A DNA stretch of 61,626 bases from Candidatus Colivicinus equi (GTDB lineage Bacteria > Bacillota_I > Bacilli_A > Erysipelotrichales > Erysipelotrichaceae), in contig JAGHUL010000002.1 of assembly GCA_018064825.1 (NCBI GenBank), forward strand, positions 1 to 61,626, given 5' to 3'. Shown one piece after another: positions 22,137 through 41,480 of the stretch. A model generated the notes under the pieces. It ran no database searches and was not told the origin of the DNA. It saw nothing but the letters and a program-made list of their open reading frames with translations. Position numbers and translations under genes: made by a program. Position 1 is the first letter of the stretch. Each line of letters begins with the position of its first letter.

Positions 22137-25100
22137 ATGGGAAAGACATTCCAATCTATGGATGGTAATACCGCTGCCGCTCATTGCGCGTATGCTTTTA
22201 CTGATGTCGCTGCTATTTACCCAATTACTCCATCTTCAACTATGGCTGAAGTTGTTGATGCTTGGGCAACGCAAAAAAGACTTAATGTTTTTGGCAATAT
22301 CGTTAAAGTAGCTGAAATGCAATCAGAAGCTGGTGCATCTGGTGCCGTTCATGGAACTTTACAAGGTGGTGCTTTAGCTACTACTTTCACTGCTTCACAA
22401 GGTTTATTATTGATGATTCCAAACATGTACAAATGGGTTGGTGAATTATTACCAGGTGTTGTACACGTTGCTGCTAGAGCTCTAGCTACTTCTGCATTAT
22501 CAATTTTCGGTGATCACGAAGATATCTATGCTGCTAGACAAACTGGTATCTGTATGCTATGTTCAAACTCTGTTCAAGAGGCTATGGATTTAGCAGGTGT
22601 TGCGCACTTATCAGCAATCAAGGGTAGTGTTCCATTCTTACATTTCTTTGATGGTTTCAGAACTTCACATGAAATTCAAAAAGTAGAAGTAATGGAATAT
22701 GATTACTTAAAATCATTATTAGATATGGATGCTGTAAAAGCATTCAAGAAAAACGCTTTAAATCCTCATGGTAACGCAGTTACTAGAGGTGGCGCAGAAA
22801 ACGATGACGTTGTTTTCCAAACTAGAGAAGCACAAAATACTCATTTCGCAAAAGTTCCTGATATCGTAGCTGATTACATGGCTAAGATTTCTGAACATAC
22901 TGGTAGAGATTATAAGCCTTTCACTTATTATGGTGCTAAGGATGCTGAAAGAGTTATTATCGCTATGGGTTCTGTTGTTGAAACTATTAAAGAAGTTATC
23001 GACGCACTTCCTAACGAAAAGATTGGTGTTGTTTCTGTTCACCTATATAGACCATTCAGCGCTAAATATTTATTAAACGTTCTTCCTGAAACAGCTAAGA
23101 AAATTGCTGTATTAGATAGAACTAAAGAAATTGGTACAAGAGAACCTCTATATTTAGATGTTCTAAGTGTACTTGCTAAGAAGGATATCACTTTAATTGG
23201 TGGTAGATATGGTATCGCTTCTAAGGATACTGCTCCTAACCAAATTAAGGCTGTATATGATGAATTAGCTAAAGATGATCCAAAACCTGAATTCACAATC
23301 GGTATCGTTGATGATGTAACTAATCTATCATTAGATGTTGATCCTAATTTCAAGGTTGAAGGTAAATATACTTCATGCTTATTCTGGGGCTTAGGTTCAG
23401 ATGGTACAGTTGGTGCTAATAAGAACTCTGTAAAGATTATTGGTGATAACACTGATCAATATGCTCAAGCTTATTTCCAATATGACTCTAGAAAAGCTGG
23501 TGGTGTTACTAGATCTCACTTAAGATTTGGTCCAGAACCAATTCATTCTACATATTATGTAAATAACGCTGACTTCATTTCATGTTCACTAGATTCATAT
23601 GTATTGAAATATGATATGCTAGCTTCATTAAAAGAAGGTGGAACATTCCTATTAAATACAACAATCGATGCTGATCAGATTGAAGACTATATGCCAAATA
23701 GAATGAAAGTTCAATTGGCAAAGAAAAATGCTAAGTTCTATATCATCAATGCAACTAAGATTGCTAATGAATGTGGTATGAGAGGAAAGACTAATACAAC
23801 ATTACAATCTGCATTCTTCGCATTGAATGAACAAATCATGCCATATGAAAAAGCTGTTGAATTAATGAAAGCTGCAGCTAAGAAATCTTATGGTAAGAAG
23901 GGTGATGCTGTTGTACAAGCTAACTGGGATGCTATTGATGCAGGTAAAGATGGTTTAGTACAAGTTACAGTTAAACCTGAATGGGCTAACCTTCCAACTA
24001 AGTTTGAAGTTGAAAAGACTGGTGATGCATACTTCGATGAATTCGTTCAAGCATTTGACTACTTGAATGGTTACGATATGAAAGTATCTGAATTCACAAA
24101 GAACGGTGTTCTAGATGGTACAATGAGAAACAATGTTTCTTATGCTGAACATAGAAATATTGCTTCATTTGCTCCAAAATGGAATCCTGATAACTGTATC
24201 CAATGTGGTTTCTGTTCATTCGTATGTCCACATGCTACAATTAGACAATTCGCTTTAACTGAAGAAGAAATCAAGAATGCTCCACAAGAATTCGCTACTA
24301 TCCAAGCTATCGGTAAGGGTGCTGAAAACTATAAGTTCAGAATCCAAGTTTCTCCTGATAACTGTGTAGGTTGTGGATTATGTGCTGCTGAGTGTCCAGG
24401 AAAGGGCGGAAATAAAGCTCTTGAAATGGTTAACGTTCATGAAATGATGGGCGAAGCTAAGTTAGCTGATTACTTATTCAATGAAACAGAATACAAGGCT
24501 GAATTAGTAAATGATACTCCAAAAGGTACTCAATTCTTAAAACCTTACTTTGAAGTTCCTGGTTCATGTCCTGGTTGTGGTGAAGCTCCTTATTACAGAT
24601 TGGTTTCACAATTATTTGGTCCTGATATGTTAGTTGCTAACGCTACAGGATGTTCATCAATTTACTGCGGTTCTACTCCATCTACTCCATTTGTTACTGA
24701 TAAGAATGGCAATGGTGTTGCTTGGGCTAACTCATTATTCGAAGATAATGCTGAATATGGTTATGGTATGGCATTAGCTAAGAACTATAAGAAAGCAACA
24801 TTATTAAAAGTTATGGAAGATAACCTAGAAAATGTTGAACCTGAATTAAAGACTTTATTAGAAGAATACTTAAAGATCAATGGTAATAGAGTTGAAGAAA
24901 AGAAACTTGCTTCTAAGATTGGTGAATTAGCTGGTAAGTCTGCTTGCGAAGCTGTTCATGTGTTAGCTGAAGAAGTAAGAGACTTAGTTTCTTGCTCAGT
25001 ATGGATCGTTGGTGGTGATGGTTGGGCATACGATATCGGTTACGGTGGCTTAGACCATGTTATCGCTAATAACTTAAATGTTAATATCTTAATCCTTGAT

Positions 25101-35667: not shown

Positions 35668-38247
35668 ATGTTAGATAGCAAGTATGATGCAAAGAAAGTT
35701 GAAGAAGGAAGATACCAAGATTGGTTAGATCATCATTATTTTGAAAGTGGTGATATGTCTAAGAAACCATATTGTATCGTTATACCTCCACCAAATGTAA
35801 CAGGTAAATTACATTTAGGACATGCGATGGATAATACGATTCAAGATTTATTAGCTAGATATAATCGTTTGAAAGGTTATGATGTTTTGTGGGTTCCTGG
35901 AATGGACCATGCAGGTATAGCTACACAAGCTAAAGTTGATGCCAGATTAAAAGAACAAGGCGTTTCTCGCTATGATATTGGTAGAGAAAAGTTCTTAGAC
36001 AAAGCATGGGAATGGAAAAAGGAATATTCTGATTTCATTAGATCTCAATGGGCAAAACTAGGTAATAGTACTGATTATCGTAAAGAAAGATTCACTTTAG
36101 ATGAAGGTTTAAGTAAGGCTGTTGCGCAAGTATTTGTTACTTATTATAAAGAGGGATTAATATATCAAGGTCAAAGAGTTATTAACTGGGACCCTCAAGC
36201 AAAGACAGCACTAAGTAATATTGAAGTTATTCATAAAGATGTAAAAGGTTATATGTATTATCTTCAATACCATGTTGTTGATTCTGATGAAACATTTGTT
36301 GTAGCAACAACTAGACCAGAGACAATGTTTGGCGATGTATGCATTGTTGTTCATCCTAAAGATGAAAAAGTAAATCACTTAATCGGTAAGAAAGCAATCA
36401 ATCCTGCAAATGGTGAAGTTTTACCTATTATTGGTGATGAATATATTGAAATAGGATTTGGAACAGGCATTATGAAATGTACTCCTGCACACGACCCTAA
36501 TGACTATCAAATCGCAATAAGACATAATCTTGAAATGCTAATTTGTATGAATGAAGATGGCACTATGAATGAATTATGCGGTGAATTTAACGGTTTAGAT
36601 AGATATGAATGTAGAGAAAAACTATTAGAAAAATTCAAGAATGAAAATGTCTTAATAAAAGCCGAAGAAATCGTCCACTCTGTAGGTCACTCAGAGAGAA
36701 CTGGCGTTATGGTAGAACCTTATCTATCAAAACAATGGTTCGTTAAGATGAAACCTTTAGCTGAAGATGTTTTGAAAGCTCAAGAAAATCCTGATACAAA
36801 GATAAATTTCTATCCAAAACGTTTTGAAAAGACATTCAACCAATGGCTAGAAAACATAGAAGATTGGTGTATATCTAGACAATTATGGTGGGGACACAGA
36901 ATACCAGTTTGGTATCACAAAGAAACTGGTGAAATCTATTGTGAAGTTGAACCTCCAAAAGATATTGAAAACTGGATACAAGATGAAGATGTATTAGATA
37001 CTTGGTTCTCTAGTGCGTTATGGCCATTCTCAACGTTAGGCTGGCCAGATACTGAGTCAGAAGATTTAAAACGTTACTTCCCAACTACATGTATGGTTAC
37101 AGGTTACGATATCATATTCTTCTGGGTAGCTAGAATGGCATTTAGTGCTCGTCATTTCTTAAATGACGTTCCATTTAAAGATTGCTTAATCCATGGCTTA
37201 ATTAGAGACGAAAAGGGTAGAAAGATGTCTAAATCCTTAGGTAATGGTATCGACCCAATCGATATTATTGATAAGTATGGTGCCGATTCACTAAGATTAT
37301 TCTTGTCTACTAATTCAACACCAGGTTTGGATATGAATTTCTCAACTGAAAAGTTAGAAGCAGGTTGGAACTTTATCAACAAGTTATGGAATGCTTCTCG
37401 TTATGTTTTGATGAATTGTGATGATACATATAAGTATAGTAAACCATCGTTTACTAATGATATTGACTGTTGGATTGTTAACAAATTAAATCAAACTGTT
37501 AAATCTGCTACAGCTAATCTTGATAAATATGAGTTAGCAATTGCTGGTAATGAAATCATGTCATTTGTTTGGGATGATTTCTGTTCAATGTATATCGAAT
37601 TTACTAAGCCAGCATTAAATAGCGAAGATATTAATTTGAAACATCAAACATTAGATACTCTTATTTATGTATTAGAAGCTATTCTTAAACTTTTACATCC
37701 ATTTATTCCTTTTGTTACTGAAGAAATTTATCAAGAGATTAATGGTAAAGATAAATCATTATTGCAAGAATTGCTTCCTGAGATTATTGAAGTTGATGCG
37801 AATAAAGCGAAAGCTATTGAAGGCGTTATCGAAATAATCAAACAAACTAGAGAGATTAGAACTGAAAACAATATCAAACCTTCAAAAGAACTTCATATCT
37901 TAGTTGAAGGTATTCAATTAGATGATTCATTAAAATCAATTTTAGCTAAGATGACTAAGCTTATTACGATTGATAAGATTGAACAAGAATCTATTGTAAG
38001 ACCATTATCATTTGGAAAGATTAGCTTCATCATGGATGAAATCGTTGATAAGGCCGCTGAACTTGAAAAGATTAATAAAGAATTAGAAAGATTAGAAAAT
38101 GAAATCAAACGTTCTAATTCTATGCTGTCTAACGAGAAGTTTGTTTCTAAAGCTCCTCAACAAAAAGTAGAAGAAGAAAGAGCTAAACTTGTTAATTACC
38201 AAAATTCATATAATACTTTATTAGAAAAAAAGAAGGATTTTGAATAA
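35668..38247 (+). CDS. valS: Valyl-tRNA synthetase
   Basis: ValRS charges tRNA-Val and edits threonine. The class I signatures are PPPNVTGKLHLGHAMDN (HIGH, near residue 40-55) and GRKMSKSLGNG (KMSKS, near 519). The editing domain (CP1) lies between, with TTRPETMFGDV. An anticodon-binding domain and a C-terminal coiled coil (AAELEKINKELERLENEI) end the protein. At 859 residues it is full length. GGGAGG before ATG 35668 is the ribosome binding site. It is controlled by the upstream T-box. The next gene overlaps by one base. Confidence 0.98.
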   Translation: MLDSKYDAKKVEEGRYQDWLDHHYFESGDMSKKPYCIVIPPPNVTGKLHLGHAMDNTIQDLLARYNRLKGYDVLWVPGMDHAGIATQAKVDARLKEQGVSRYDIGREKFLDKAWEWKKEYSDFIRSQWAKLGNSTDYRKERFTLDEGLSKAVAQVFVTYYKEGLIYQGQRVINWDPQAKTALSNIEVIHKDVKGYMYYLQYHVVDSDETFVVATTRPETMFGDVCIVVHPKDEKVNHLIGKKAINPANGEVLPIIGDEYIEIGFGTGIMKCTPAHDPNDYQIAIRHNLEMLICMNEDGTMNELCGEFNGLDRYECREKLLEKFKNENVLIKAEEIVHSVGHSERTGVMVEPYLSKQWFVKMKPLAEDVLKAQENPDTKINFYPKRFEKTFNQWLENIEDWCISRQLWWGHRIPVWYHKETGEIYCEVEPPKDIENWIQDEDVLDTWFSSALWPFSTLGWPDTESEDLKRYFPTTCMVTGYDIIFFWVARMAFSARHFLNDVPFKDCLIHGLIRDEKGRKMSKSLGNGIDPIDIIDKYGADSLRLFLSTNSTPGLDMNFSTEKLEAGWNFINKLWNASRYVLMNCDDTYKYSKPSFTNDIDCWIVNKLNQTVKSATANLDKYELAIAGNEIMSFVWDDFCSMYIEFTKPALNSEDINLKHQTLDTLIYVLEAILKLLHPFIPFVTEEIYQEINGKDKSLLQELLPEIIEVDANKAKAIEGVIEIIKQTREIRTENNIKPSKELHILVEGIQLDDSLKSILAKMTKLITIDKIEQESIVRPLSFGKISFIMDEIVDKAAELEKINKELERLENEIKRSNSMLSNEKFVSKAPQQKVEEERAKLVNYQNSYNTLLEKKKDFE

Positions 38248-39146
38248 TGAAATTAGTTAATAAAGCGTTGTTGTTTACTGGTGCAGGTGTTCTTGCTTAT
38301 GAAAGCATGCTAGATGCTGTTTTTGAAAAGTGTTTTAGTACTAAAACCCCATTATTTAAAGAAAGCTTTGATAAGTATGATGAATATAAGGGCTATCTTC
38401 AAAACTCTAATGTTAACTCTGTGACAATAACATCATATGATGGTTTAAAGTTAAATGCCTATCGCATTACTAATCATGACAATAATAAATATGTAATTAT
38501 TATTCATGGGTTTACTGGAAATAAAAACGATATGTATGATGTCGCAAAGAAATTTGATGATATGGGTTATAACATTTTGCTTATTGATCAAAGAGGTAGT
38601 GGTGAATCAGAAGGTAAGTATGCAACATATGGTTTAAAAGAATCATTGGATTTGGTTAAGTGGATTGATTATTTAGTTAATAAGTGTCCTAATTCACAAA
38701 TTGTTTTATACGGAATATCGATGGGTGCATCTACAGTGTTATCAAGCTTAGGAACAAAACTTCCTGATAATGTAAAATGTGCTATTGAAGATTCTGGATT
38801 CTCTTCTTTATATGAAGAATTAAAATTCTTTATGAAAGAAAAATATCACTTAGTATTTGTAGATACAATCTTGAAGTTATTAGAAAAGAAAATAATTTCT
38901 AAGTTAGATTTTACTTATGAAGATTGTAATCATAAAATTGCATTAAAAAACAATAATGTTCCATTGTTGATAATTCATGGAACTGCAGATACTATCGTTC
39001 CATTTGAAATGTCTAAACGTATATATAATTCTACAAACGGTGCTAAGAAAATATTCGTTGTTGAAGGCGTAGATCACTGTGAATGCAAATCAAATGAAAA
39101 ATATTATATTAATATAAAATCGTTTATTGATAATTATGTAGTGTAA
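38247..39146 (+). CDS. Alpha/beta hydrolase, probably membrane-tethered
   Basis: The 299-residue protein has a short hydrophobic N-terminal stretch (LLFTGAGVLAYESML) and then an alpha/beta hydrolase fold. IIHGFTGNKNDMYDVAKKF holds the oxyanion loop, DQRGSGESEG follows, and the nucleophile elbow is YGISMGAST with Ser near residue 165. An Asp in HGTADTIVPF and a His in GVDHCECK complete the triad. It resembles the YqkD/BAAT-like serine hydrolases. The substrate is not readable. It overlaps the valS stop (TAATG), so it would also be under T-box control. A strong terminator follows. Confidence 0.85.
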   Translation: MKLVNKALLFTGAGVLAYESMLDAVFEKCFSTKTPLFKESFDKYDEYKGYLQNSNVNSVTITSYDGLKLNAYRITNHDNNKYVIIIHGFTGNKNDMYDVAKKFDDMGYNILLIDQRGSGESEGKYATYGLKESLDLVKWIDYLVNKCPNSQIVLYGISMGASTVLSSLGTKLPDNVKCAIEDSGFSSLYEELKFFMKEKYHLVFVDTILKLLEKKIISKLDFTYEDCNHKIALKNNNVPLLIIHGTADTIVPFEMSKRIYNSTNGAKKIFVVEGVDHCECKSNEKYYINIKSFIDNYVV

Positions 39147-39237: not shown

Positions 39238-39266
39238 TTGCATTGTGAAAATAATGGAATTATAAT
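39238..39266 (+). promoter_or_regulatory. Promoter of the H1-like gene
   Basis: TTGCAT (39238-39243), a 17-base spacer, and TATAAT (39261-39266). At the very start of the predicted transcript GAGAT (39274-39278) pairs with ATCTC (39284-39288), a possible 5' stabilising hairpin. Confidence 0.75.
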
Positions 39267-39321
39267 TTTTATGGAGATAAAAAATCTCTATTACAAAAAG
39301 AATAAGAAAGGGAAAATTATT

Positions 39322-39471
39322 ATGCCAGAAAAGAAAGTTGCTAAGAAAGCTACTACTGCTAAGAAGGCTGTTGCTAAGAAAGCTGCTCCTGCTAAGAAGA
39401 CAGTTGCTAAGAAAGCTGCTCCTGCTAAGAAAGCTACAGCTAAGAAAGCTCCTGCTAAAAAAGCTAAATAG
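39322..39471 (+). CDS. Tiny histone-H1-like Lys/Ala-rich protein
   Basis: The true product is 49 residues from ATG 39322 (AAAGGG upstream); the ORF track's start at 39238 lies at the promoter -35. After MPEKK it consists of four 11-residue units of the VAKKAAPAKKT type, the last reading TAKKAPAKKAK. About 45 percent of it is lysine. It resembles the basic tails of HctB/BpH1-like and AlgP-like bacterial H1 homologs, which bind DNA through charge. It is monocistronic, with a strong promoter and a strong terminator, so it is likely abundant. A role in nucleoid compaction or RNA binding is inference. A leucine-rich overlapping ORF at 39338 is a frame shadow. Confidence 0.8.
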   Translation: MPEKKVAKKATTAKKAVAKKAAPAKKTVAKKAAPAKKATAKKAPAKKAK

Positions 39472-39482
39472 TAATGCGAGAA

Positions 39483-39507
39483 AAGAAGTTGAAAAACTTC
39501 TTTTTTT
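39483..39507 (+). terminator. Terminator after the H1-like gene
   Basis: AAGAAGTT (39483-39490) and AACTTCTT (39495-39502) close a GAAA tetraloop, followed by T5 or more. Confidence 0.93.
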
Positions 39508-39533
39508 GTACTTATTTTTAATTTTGCTATAAT
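39505..39533 (+). promoter_or_regulatory. Promoter of the thrS T-box transcript
   Basis: TTTGTA (39505-39510), 17 bases, TATAAT (39528-39533), with an extended TGC in front of the -10. The transcript would begin near 39540. Confidence 0.65.
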
Positions 39534-39539
39534 AATTCT

Positions 39540-39733
39540 AGATACAAAGATTAAGACACGATTAAGTTGAATAGTGTTTCAGAGAAATAACGGTTGGTGA
39601 AAGTTATTACACTTCAATTTGATTACTACTTATGAGTTTCTCCTTAATAGGAAGGCGTTGCTTGCGTTAAAAGCATTAAGAAATAAGTTAAGGTGGTACC
39701 TCGCATTCGCGACCTTGTGCCATCTTTTTTTAT
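39540..39733 (+). promoter_or_regulatory. T-box leader of thrS (threonine specifier ACU)
   Basis: The T-box reads AAGGTGGTACCTCGC (39690-39704), with one extra T relative to the usual TACCGCG. AAGGTGGTAC (39690-39699) pairs with GTGCCATCTT (39717-39726) to form the terminator, then T6 follows. The triplet ACT at 39626-39628 occupies the place of GTT in the valS leader and is the likely threonine specifier. Both leaders share the stem I stretch AACGGTTGGTGAAAGTTAT. Confidence 0.92.
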
Positions 39734-39749
39734 GATTAGGAGGATAAAA

Positions 39750-41480
39750 ATGATTAACGTTAAAGAAAATGAACAATTAAGTATTATGAATCATTCATGT
39801 GCGCACTTGCTGGCTCAAGCAGTTACACATCTATTTCCAAATGCAAAGTTTTGGGTTGGGCCTGTAATAGAAGAAGGCTTCTATTATGATATGGATTTAG
39901 GTGATTATGCTATTAAAGATGATGACTTAGAAAAGATTGAAAAAGAAATGAAGAAAATCGTCAAAGATGGTAAACGCATTGTTAGAAAAGAAATTAGCAA
40001 AGATGAAGCTCTTGAGATGTTTAAAGACGATCCATATAAGATCGATTTAATAAACAATATGGAAGAAGGTTCTATTATTACTACATATACACAAGGTGAT
40101 TTTACAGATTTATGTAGAGGTCCTCATGTTGAAACTGTTAAAGAGTTAAAGAACTTCAAATTATTAAAACATTCTGGTGCATATTGGAAGGGTGATGCTA
40201 ATAACAAAATGCTTCAAAGAATATATGGCATTTGTTTCCCTAGCCAAGAAGAATTAGAAACTCATTTAAATCAAATTGAAGAAGCTAAAAAAAGAGATCA
40301 TCGTAAATTAGGAAAAGAAATGGGTTTATTCATGATGTCTGATTATGGCCCAGGTCTACCATTCTGGCTTCCTAATGGTTATGTATTAAGAAGAACGCTT
40401 GAAGATTTCTGGTTGAAACTACATGCAGAAAGAGGTTATCAAACTATAGATACTCCTATCTTCTTAAATAGAGAATTATGGGAAACTAGTGGACACTGGG
40501 ATCATTACAAAGATGATATGTATACATTTGATGTTGAAGATGGAACATATGCTATTAAGCCTATGAACTGTCCTGGTGCTATTCTTGTTTATAATAATGC
40601 ACTTCACTCATATAAAGAATTACCATTAAGATATTCAGAATTAGGACATGTTCATAGATATGAAGCTAGTGGTGCACTTAGCGGTTTATTTAGAGTTAGA
40701 GGATTCACACAAGATGATGCTCATATCTTATTAATGGAATCACAAATCGGTGATGAAGTAGCCAGAATTCTAGAACTTTATGATTATGTATATTCTATTT
40801 TTGGTTTAAATTATGCTATCGAATTATCAACTAGACCGGAAGATTTTATTGGTGAAATTGAAGTTTGGGATGCTGCTGAAAAAGCATTAGAAAAAGCATG
40901 TTTAGCAACTGGACATAAGTTTAAAATTAATCCAGGTGATGGTGCGTTCTATGGCCCAAAATTAGACTTCAAGCTTACAGATTCATTAGGAAGAATTTGG
41001 CAATGTGGAACTGTACAATTAGATATGCAACTTCCAGGAAGATTTAATTGTACTTATATTGCTGAAGATGGTTCTAAGAAAACTCCAGTTATGATTCATA
41101 GAGCATGCTTTGGTTCTCTTGAAAGATTTATTGGTATTTTAATAGAAAATTATGGTGGCGTATTCCCACTGTGGTTGGCACCAAAACAAGTAACTATTAT
41201 TCCTGTTAATAGCGAAATTCATAGTGAATATGCAAATAAAGTTAAACAGTTATTAATTGAGAAGGGTATTAAAGTCGAAGTTGATGATCGTAACGAAAAA
41301 CTTGGTTATCGTATGAGAGAGGCTCAATTAACTAAAGTTCCAGTAGTTCTTGTAGTTGGCGATAATGAAATGAATTCAAATACCGTCAATATAAGAAGAC
41401 ATGGCAAGGAAGGACAACAATCAATGGGTGTTGATGAATTGATTGAGTCATTGCAAAAAGAAATAGAAGAAAAGAAATAA
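39750..41480 (+). CDS. thrS: Threonyl-tRNA synthetase, without TGS domain
   Basis: ThrRS charges tRNA-Thr and edits serine. From ATG 39750 (AGGAGG upstream) it has 576 residues; the track's earlier start at 39693 lies in the T-box. It opens at the editing domain, with HSCAHLLAQAVTHLFP near residue 14, where most ThrRS have about 60 residues of TGS domain first. The editing His and Cys are in the expected places (HSGAYW). The class II core shows PIFLNRELWETSGHWDHYKDDM, KPMNCPGAILVY, and RVRGFTQDDAHIL. The anticodon domain ends the protein. Loss of TGS is also seen in some Mollicutes-like genomes (from memory). Confidence 0.97.
   Translation: MINVKENEQLSIMNHSCAHLLAQAVTHLFPNAKFWVGPVIEEGFYYDMDLGDYAIKDDDLEKIEKEMKKIVKDGKRIVRKEISKDEALEMFKDDPYKIDLINNMEEGSIITTYTQGDFTDLCRGPHVETVKELKNFKLLKHSGAYWKGDANNKMLQRIYGICFPSQEELETHLNQIEEAKKRDHRKLGKEMGLFMMSDYGPGLPFWLPNGYVLRRTLEDFWLKLHAERGYQTIDTPIFLNRELWETSGHWDHYKDDMYTFDVEDGTYAIKPMNCPGAILVYNNALHSYKELPLRYSELGHVHRYEASGALSGLFRVRGFTQDDAHILLMESQIGDEVARILELYDYVYSIFGLNYAIELSTRPEDFIGEIEVWDAAEKALEKACLATGHKFKINPGDGAFYGPKLDFKLTDSLGRIWQCGTVQLDMQLPGRFNCTYIAEDGSKKTPVMIHRACFGSLERFIGILIENYGGVFPLWLAPKQVTIIPVNSEIHSEYANKVKQLLIEKGIKVEVDDRNEKLGYRMREAQLTKVPVVLVVGDNEMNSNTVNIRRHGKEGQQSMGVDELIESLQKEIEEKK

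What the first reader, a model, noticed from the sequence alone, without database searches (positions are those of the whole stretch)
39238..39507. 49-residue histone-H1-like protein made of four 11-residue units
A strong TTGCAT-17-TATAAT promoter, a 5' hairpin, a clean Shine-Dalgarno and a strong GNRA-loop terminator surround a tiny gene that encodes nothing but Lys/Ala/Pro repeats. Such proteins are known as H1-like in Chlamydia and Bordetella but are unexpected in an AT-rich Bacillota. It may be a nucleoid or RNA-coating protein. ORF callers would misplace its start or report the frame-shadow.
Basis: partly seen in the sequence, partly recalled or inferred. Interest (0 to 1): 0.55.

Follow-up and report, generated by a model that had tools for sequence, protein, structure and literature searches.

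The report
Tiny histone-H1-like lysine-alanine-proline protein
A gut bacterium of the Erysipelotrichaceae carries a real, probably strongly expressed gene for a 49-residue protein made almost only of lysine, alanine and proline, which most likely coats DNA or RNA like the H1-like proteins of Chlamydia and Bordetella; it is a small new member of a known kind rather than something new in principle.

Summary
Window 39322-39471 (+) encodes a 49-aa Lys/Ala/Pro protein with its own promoter, 5' hairpin, Shine-Dalgarno site and terminator, between an alpha/beta-hydrolase gene and the T-box leader of thrS. The gene is real by comparative test. At least 13 of 36 genomes of the genus carry a free-standing KAP gene (full length 49-131 aa) in the same valS-thrS interval. 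Its frame is open, while the +1 shadow frame has stops in every other ortholog. In the 12 orthologs whose upstream side is readable, the start, the TATAAT box and a 5' hairpin whose sequence changes but whose stem persists are retained (combined p = 2e-7). Another 15 genomes cleanly lack it.

Best explanation: an abundant, disordered polycation that binds nucleic acid without sequence specificity. The 39-residue AKKA-repeat tail of mycobacterial HbhA is reported sufficient for DNA binding. DNA versus RNA is unresolved: in related Bacilli the same segment occurs as a tail on ribosomal proteins, trigger factor, PPDK, enolase and MscL, none a recognised DNA-binding protein. HU is present; polyphosphate kinase PPK1 is absent, which disfavours an AlgP-like granule tether. 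Formal Hc2 membership fails the Pfam cut-off (24.3 versus 40 bits). No expression or binding could be tested.

The parts
39238..39243 (+). -35-like element TTGCAT, 17 nt from the -10
   Evidence: TTG with 16-18 nt spacing found upstream of most orthologous genes, TTGCAT/TTGTAT in several. 3 of 6 consensus matches.
39261..39266 (+). -10 box TATAAT
   Evidence: TATAAT present in all 12 orthologs with readable upstream sequence
39271..39291 (+). 5' hairpin (8-bp stem, 5-nt loop) at the predicted transcript start
   Evidence: z -5.3; hairpin at about the same place in 12 of 12 orthologs with differing stem sequences, combined Fisher p 2e-7
39307..39312 (+). Shine-Dalgarno AAAGGG, 9 nt before the ATG
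   Evidence: AAAGGG or AAGGAAGGA retained in orthologs
39322..39471 (+). kap gene: 49-aa Lys/Ala/Pro protein, stop TAG included
   Evidence: syntenic orthologs in 12 further genomes of the genus
39475..39510 (+). intrinsic terminator, 16-pair stem, GAAA loop, T-rich end
   Evidence: hairpin kept with changed loop and loop-closing sequence in the nearest relative, G026

Best explanation
An independently transcribed gene, probably strongly expressed, makes a fully disordered 49-residue polycation. Lysine pairs spaced every 5-6 residues by Ala, Pro, Thr and Val neutralise the phosphate backbone of nucleic acid without sequence specificity. Bound along DNA it would help compact the nucleoid beside HU, and it may bind RNA as well. 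The number of repeats sets valence, so length can drift (49-131 aa among species) while composition is kept. Shown here: gene structure, conservation of place, frame, start and control signals, composition, and highly-expressed-type codon use. Inferred: disorder, high expression, nucleic-acid binding, and the choice of DNA as the main partner.
For: Orthologs keep K 35-42%, A 35-41%, P 6-17% and net charge +18 to +48 while length and repeat order vary. One four-residue unit AKKA is spelled by up to 8 different DNA sequences within a gene, so the protein rather than the DNA is conserved. Alanine is GCT in 17 of 17 codons and Lys AAG 0.53, like rpsB (0.74, 0.47), tsf (0.86, 0.33) and the 1163-residue ORF at 22137 (0.78, 0.52), against window averages 0.59 and 0.33. 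A conserved 5' hairpin and terminator fit a stable message. Weak Pfam HC2 match for the window protein (E 3.9e-5), exactly at the cut-off for one ortholog (40.0 bits). Precedent: the AKKA-repeat C-terminal domain of HbhA (residues 161-199) is reported necessary and sufficient for DNA binding (PMC10665949). Peptides with KPAA repeats of AlgP bind DNA in vitro (PMC9239181). Hc2 has the same pentamer/hexamer build (PMC2848022).
Against: No binding, expression or localisation data. The gene is dispensable: 15 genomes of the genus lack it at an intact locus. KAP tails in related Bacilli sit on ribosomal proteins, trigger factor, PPDK, enolase and MscL, not on recognised DNA-binding proteins, so DNA is not the obvious common partner. 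GCT counts in tandem repeats are not independent.
Confidence: 0.6

Rival explanations
1. It is mainly an RNA- or ribosome-associated polycation: it binds rRNA or mRNA and tunes the crowded, negatively charged cytoplasm rather than the chromosome.
For: In the same class KAP tails are on L20 (L081, L082; Pfam) and on sequences I read as S2, S17, L22 and trigger factor (L248-L253), and on abundant enzymes. The DNA-compaction role already has HU: 3 copies in the own genome.
Against: The free-standing proteins with known function (Hc2, BpH1) and the isolated HbhA tail act on DNA. Ribosomal tails may only help assembly of their own host protein.
Confidence: 0.22
2. It is an AlgP/PhaF-like tether that links polyphosphate or PHA granules to the nucleoid.
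For: AlgP with KPAA repeats localises to polyphosphate granules (PMC9239181).
Against: PPK1 (PF02503) is absent from the own genome and from every kap carrier; only G024 and G027 have it, and neither carries a detected kap gene. The protein has no second domain to hold a granule. PPK2 and PHA genes were not searched.
Confidence: 0.04
3. The free-standing KAP protein and the KAP tail of PPDK are alternative forms of one function, so genomes have one or the other.
For: In another genus of the family (g7) free-standing KAP genes sit directly behind ppdK, whose own end is lysine-rich. G004, G010 and G034 have kap and no PPDK tail.
Against: Across 20 genomes tail charge does not differ with kap presence (Mann-Whitney p 0.19); G005, G020 and G035 have both.
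Confidence: 0.05
4. No functional protein: a chance repeat ORF or transcribed repeat.
For: Low complexity, patchy presence, antisense frames also open.
Against: Conserved synteny, start, SD, promoter, a 5' hairpin that persists through sequence change, in-frame length changes and synonymous variation in many species; the +1 frame is interrupted in every other ortholog.
Confidence: 0.03

Closest known systems
Chlamydia Hc2 (HctB), Pfam PF07382, and Bordetella BpH1
   Same: Lys-rich pentamers and hexamers, Ala/Pro/Thr/Val spacers, species-to-species size change by repeat number, no conventional fold, free-standing protein.
   Different: Hc2 is 165-237 aa and BpH1 182-206 aa (PMC2848022); this is 49 aa (orthologs to 131). 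Below the Pfam and NCBIfam cut-offs. No Arg, and no distinct C-terminal domain.
AKKA/PAKKA-repeat tails of mycobacterial HupB and HbhA
   Same: Nearly identical repeat (AKKA, PAKKA) and similar length to the HbhA tail, which is reported sufficient for DNA binding (PMC10665949).
   Different: There the repeat is the tail of a folded protein; here it is the whole protein. No HU or coiled-coil domain.
Pseudomonas AlgP and PhaF C-terminal domains
   Same: Disordered K/P/A repeats that bind DNA.
   Different: KPAA rather than AKKA spacing, N-terminal helical domain present in AlgP, tied to granules; PPK1 absent here.
Lysine repeats of actinobacterial TopA, Ku and HupS
   Same: H1-like lysine repeats used as modular add-ons that raise DNA affinity (PMC7398561).
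   Different: Tails on DNA-acting proteins; in the present lineage tails are on metabolic and ribosomal proteins and the KAP segment also stands alone.

Membership tests
Hc2 family (Pfam PF07382) | Score above the curated cut-off | tested here: not met
   24.3 bits versus 40 for the window protein; one ortholog (G010) reaches exactly 40.0 and another (G012) has no hit
Hc2 family (Pfam PF07382) | Arrays of lysine-rich pentamers and hexamers along most of the protein | tested here: met
   TRF period 33 and 15 nt; AKKxx/AKKAxx units
Hc2 family (Pfam PF07382) | Binds DNA and condenses the nucleoid | not testable with these tools
   no binding or imaging data
NCBIfam histone H1-like DNA-binding protein (NF038053, NF038052) | Score above the curated cut-off | tested here: not met
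   18.4 versus 80 and 17 versus 135 bits
AlgP-type polyphosphate granule protein | Host makes polyphosphate (PPK1) | tested here: not met
   PF02503 absent in own genome and all kap carriers; control genomes match. PPK2 not searched.
HU-type nucleoid protein | PF00216 domain | tested here: not met
   no PF00216 match in the protein; HU is encoded elsewhere in the genome
Bacterial H1-like polycation (functional class) | High Lys/Ala/Pro content, no hydrophobic core, strong net positive charge | tested here: met
   K 0.39, A 0.35, P 0.08, net +18 in 49 aa; orthologs alike

The most novel reading that the evidence does not exclude
In Erysipelotrichaceae and some related Bacilli the KAP segment is an interchangeable polycation tag: added to abundant ribosomal and glycolytic proteins and also released as free-standing small proteins, it would gather these proteins with nucleic acid into a shared condensed phase rather than serve as a classical nucleoid protein.
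Probability: 0.12. Interest if true: 0.65.

Novelty: new member of a known kind. Interest (0 to 1): 0.36.

Why it matters
Free-standing H1-like proteins are known chiefly from Chlamydiae and Proteobacteria. This is a conserved, minimal, repeat-only version in gut Bacilli, missed by domain cut-offs, misplaced by ORF listing, and in at least two assemblies cut by a contig end. It offers a natural length series (49 to 131 residues) for asking how many lysine repeats a nucleic-acid condenser needs, and natural losses in close relatives as controls.

Tried and rejected
Complementarity of the free-standing gene with the PPDK tail: looked promising on the first genomes, rejected on 20. PolyP-granule tether: PPK1 absent. 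Longer start at TTG 39238 or ATG 39271: both lie at or before the predicted transcript start, and the upstream residues are not conserved while M(A/P)xKK after an SD is. Co-transcription with thrS: separated by a terminator and a T-box leader. Phage origin: no PHROGs match. Solved structures: none. MAFFT alignment of the 5' hairpins was too poor for pair counting, so per-sequence folding against dinucleotide shuffles was used instead. Sequence search with the protein alone missed most orthologs; synteny and a codon-degenerate DNA pattern found them. In the ValS tree G008 was scored as lacking the gene although its contig ends before the site; it nests among absent rows, so the count of 5 changes should not depend on it. 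AlphaFold was not run: a repeat-only protein without a hydrophobic core was not expected to give an informative model. Three paper searches for such proteins returned nothing.

Full report
What is there. Window 39322-39471 (+) encodes a 49-residue protein of 19 Lys, 17 Ala, 4 Pro, 4 Thr, 3 Val, 1 Glu and the Met. It lies between an alpha/beta-hydrolase gene (38247-39146, Pfam Hydrolase_4) and the T-box leader (39538-39719, Rfam RF00230, E 5e-18, 81.5 bits against a gathering score of 93) of thrS (39750-41480); valS is upstream of the hydrolase. The DNA has a 33-nt tandem period (3.5 copies, 87% match) that resolves into 15- plus 18-nt subunits, that is, an AKKxx pentamer plus an AKKAxx hexamer. 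It is the only match in the own genome to a codon-degenerate KAP pattern.

Control signals. A perfect TATAAT with TTGCAT 17 nt upstream, an 8-bp hairpin at the predicted transcript start, AAAGGG 9 nt before the ATG, and a 16-pair terminator with a GAAA loop. On its own the promoter match is no better than background. Comparison changes that: all 12 orthologs with readable upstream sequence have TATAAT followed within a few bases by a hairpin, and the stem sequences differ between groups (GGAGAU/AUCUCU here, GAGG/CCUC in six, GUAUGAGA/UCUCGUAU in another, UAGAUAAA/UUUAUCUA in a further group). The folding energies against dinucleotide shuffles combine to Fisher p 2e-7, although five single sequences are not significant alone (p 0.12-0.22) and relatedness is not corrected for. 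Most of these orthologs also have TTG 16-18 nt before the -10. The nearest relative (G026, ThrS 94% identical over 195 residues) has its contig end inside the same repeat and retains the gene's 3' end and terminator hairpin.

Is it a gene? In 13 of 36 genomes of the genus (G000, G004, G005, G010, G011, G012, G020, G026, G028, G031, G032, G034, G035) the valS-thrS interval holds a free-standing KAP ORF; full copies are 49 to 131 aa, and those in G005 and G026 are cut by contig ends. Fifteen genomes have the interval intact without it, with thrS close behind the hydrolase (about 250 bp), directly behind valS (G025), behind an mscL-like gene (G007) or behind an unrelated membrane ORF (G002). Eight cannot be judged because contigs end or genes are missing. 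On a ValS tree the presence pattern needs 5 changes against 8.8 for shuffled labels. The reading frame is kept through all length changes, AKKA is spelled by 3-8 different DNA sequences within each gene, and the +1 shadow frame that is open here has stops in all other orthologs. Ala codons are GCT in 17 of 17 cases and AAG is 53% of Lys codons, the bias of rpsB, tsf and the 1163-residue ORF at 22137 in the same window; tandem copies make these counts non-independent.

Whose genome. The nearest named records with this hydrolase are Erysipelotrichaceae metagenome assemblies, many from ruminant gut; contig lengths identify G028 with isolate RUG14118 and G035 with CAMNFQ01. The window's own genome is 1.69 Mb in 130 contigs, 96% complete, 5% contaminated; window G+C is 32%.

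Where else the segment occurs. By the strict DNA pattern, 38 of 295 genomes sampled in the order and 10 of 245 in the phylum tier match, with none for the reversed control pattern. Besides free-standing genes, KAP stretches are terminal parts of larger proteins. Those confirmed by a domain or BLAST match are ribosomal L20, MscL and DUF1508 and PPDK. Those read from sequence by me are enolase, an alpha-amylase-like enzyme, S2, S17, L22 and trigger factor. In several g7 proteins the KAP part is N-terminal to a domain of about 75 residues that has no Pfam match. In g7 six free-standing KAP genes lie directly behind ppdK. I recognised no DNA-binding protein among these carriers.

How it most likely works. 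A polycation with lysine pairs every 5-6 residues and almost no acid should be disordered and bind nucleic acid by charge. The best precedent in size is the HbhA C-terminal domain, 39 residues with five AKKA motifs, reported necessary and sufficient for DNA binding (PMC10665949); AlgP KPAA peptides bind DNA (PMC9239181); Hc2 has the same pentamer/hexamer build and varies in length by repeat number (PMC2848022). DNA as main partner is inferred from these. Because tails in this lineage sit on translation and glycolysis proteins, RNA is a serious rival. HU is present in the genome, so this protein would be an accessory, consistent with its repeated absence. A polyphosphate-granule tether is disfavoured by the absence of PPK1.

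Verdict. A real gene and a sound first-stage reading, with 'strong promoter' and 'unexpected in Bacillota' somewhat overstated. It works, most likely, like an H1-like protein; it is not a formal member of the Hc2 family by score. Interest is moderate: a minimal, conserved and length-variable case in a new lineage, with function untested.

Noticed in passing
L045, L080, L096, L100, L201, L203, L213-L241 (PPDK C-termini): Pyruvate phosphate dikinase carries a lysine-rich C-terminal extension after IARLAAAQAAI of 18-54 residues in most genomes of the genus (own genome: KNAPKKETKKACKKTCKK), and only 3-7 residues in others.
   Followed up: partly
L083, L086, L088, L089, L090, L091: In another genus of the family (g7) free-standing KAP genes sit directly downstream of ppdK, a second recurrent genomic setting for the same kind of protein.
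   Followed up: partly
L047/L073 (G025), L051/L070 (G035), L081, L082, L084, L247-L253: KAP extensions on MscL, a DUF1508 protein, ribosomal L20, and on sequences read as S2, S17, L22, enolase and trigger factor in various Bacilli.
   Followed up: partly
L085, L087, L092-L095, L097, L099: Recurrent protein with an N-terminal KAP stretch and a conserved C-terminal domain of about 75 residues (DVINWKK..EAH.M.WLYIEI.AG.....EAG..N) that gives no Pfam match (one member tested).
   Followed up: no
L050 (G034), L245 (G007): An mscL gene occupies the valS-thrS interval where the hydrolase or kap gene stands in relatives, so this interval looks like a site of repeated gene exchange.
   Followed up: no
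L012/L069 (G005), L242 (G026): Metagenome contigs end inside the kap repeat, so such genes are probably undercounted in draft genomes.
   Followed up: yes
L068/L071 (G012:C205): A second KAP protein in G012 has a long N-terminal KAP stretch and a short C-terminal domain (KVIFEIDGQQIDYKKIEKKAAKLGGDVYVVVNEKKIFDKDGKSVDIF).
   Followed up: no
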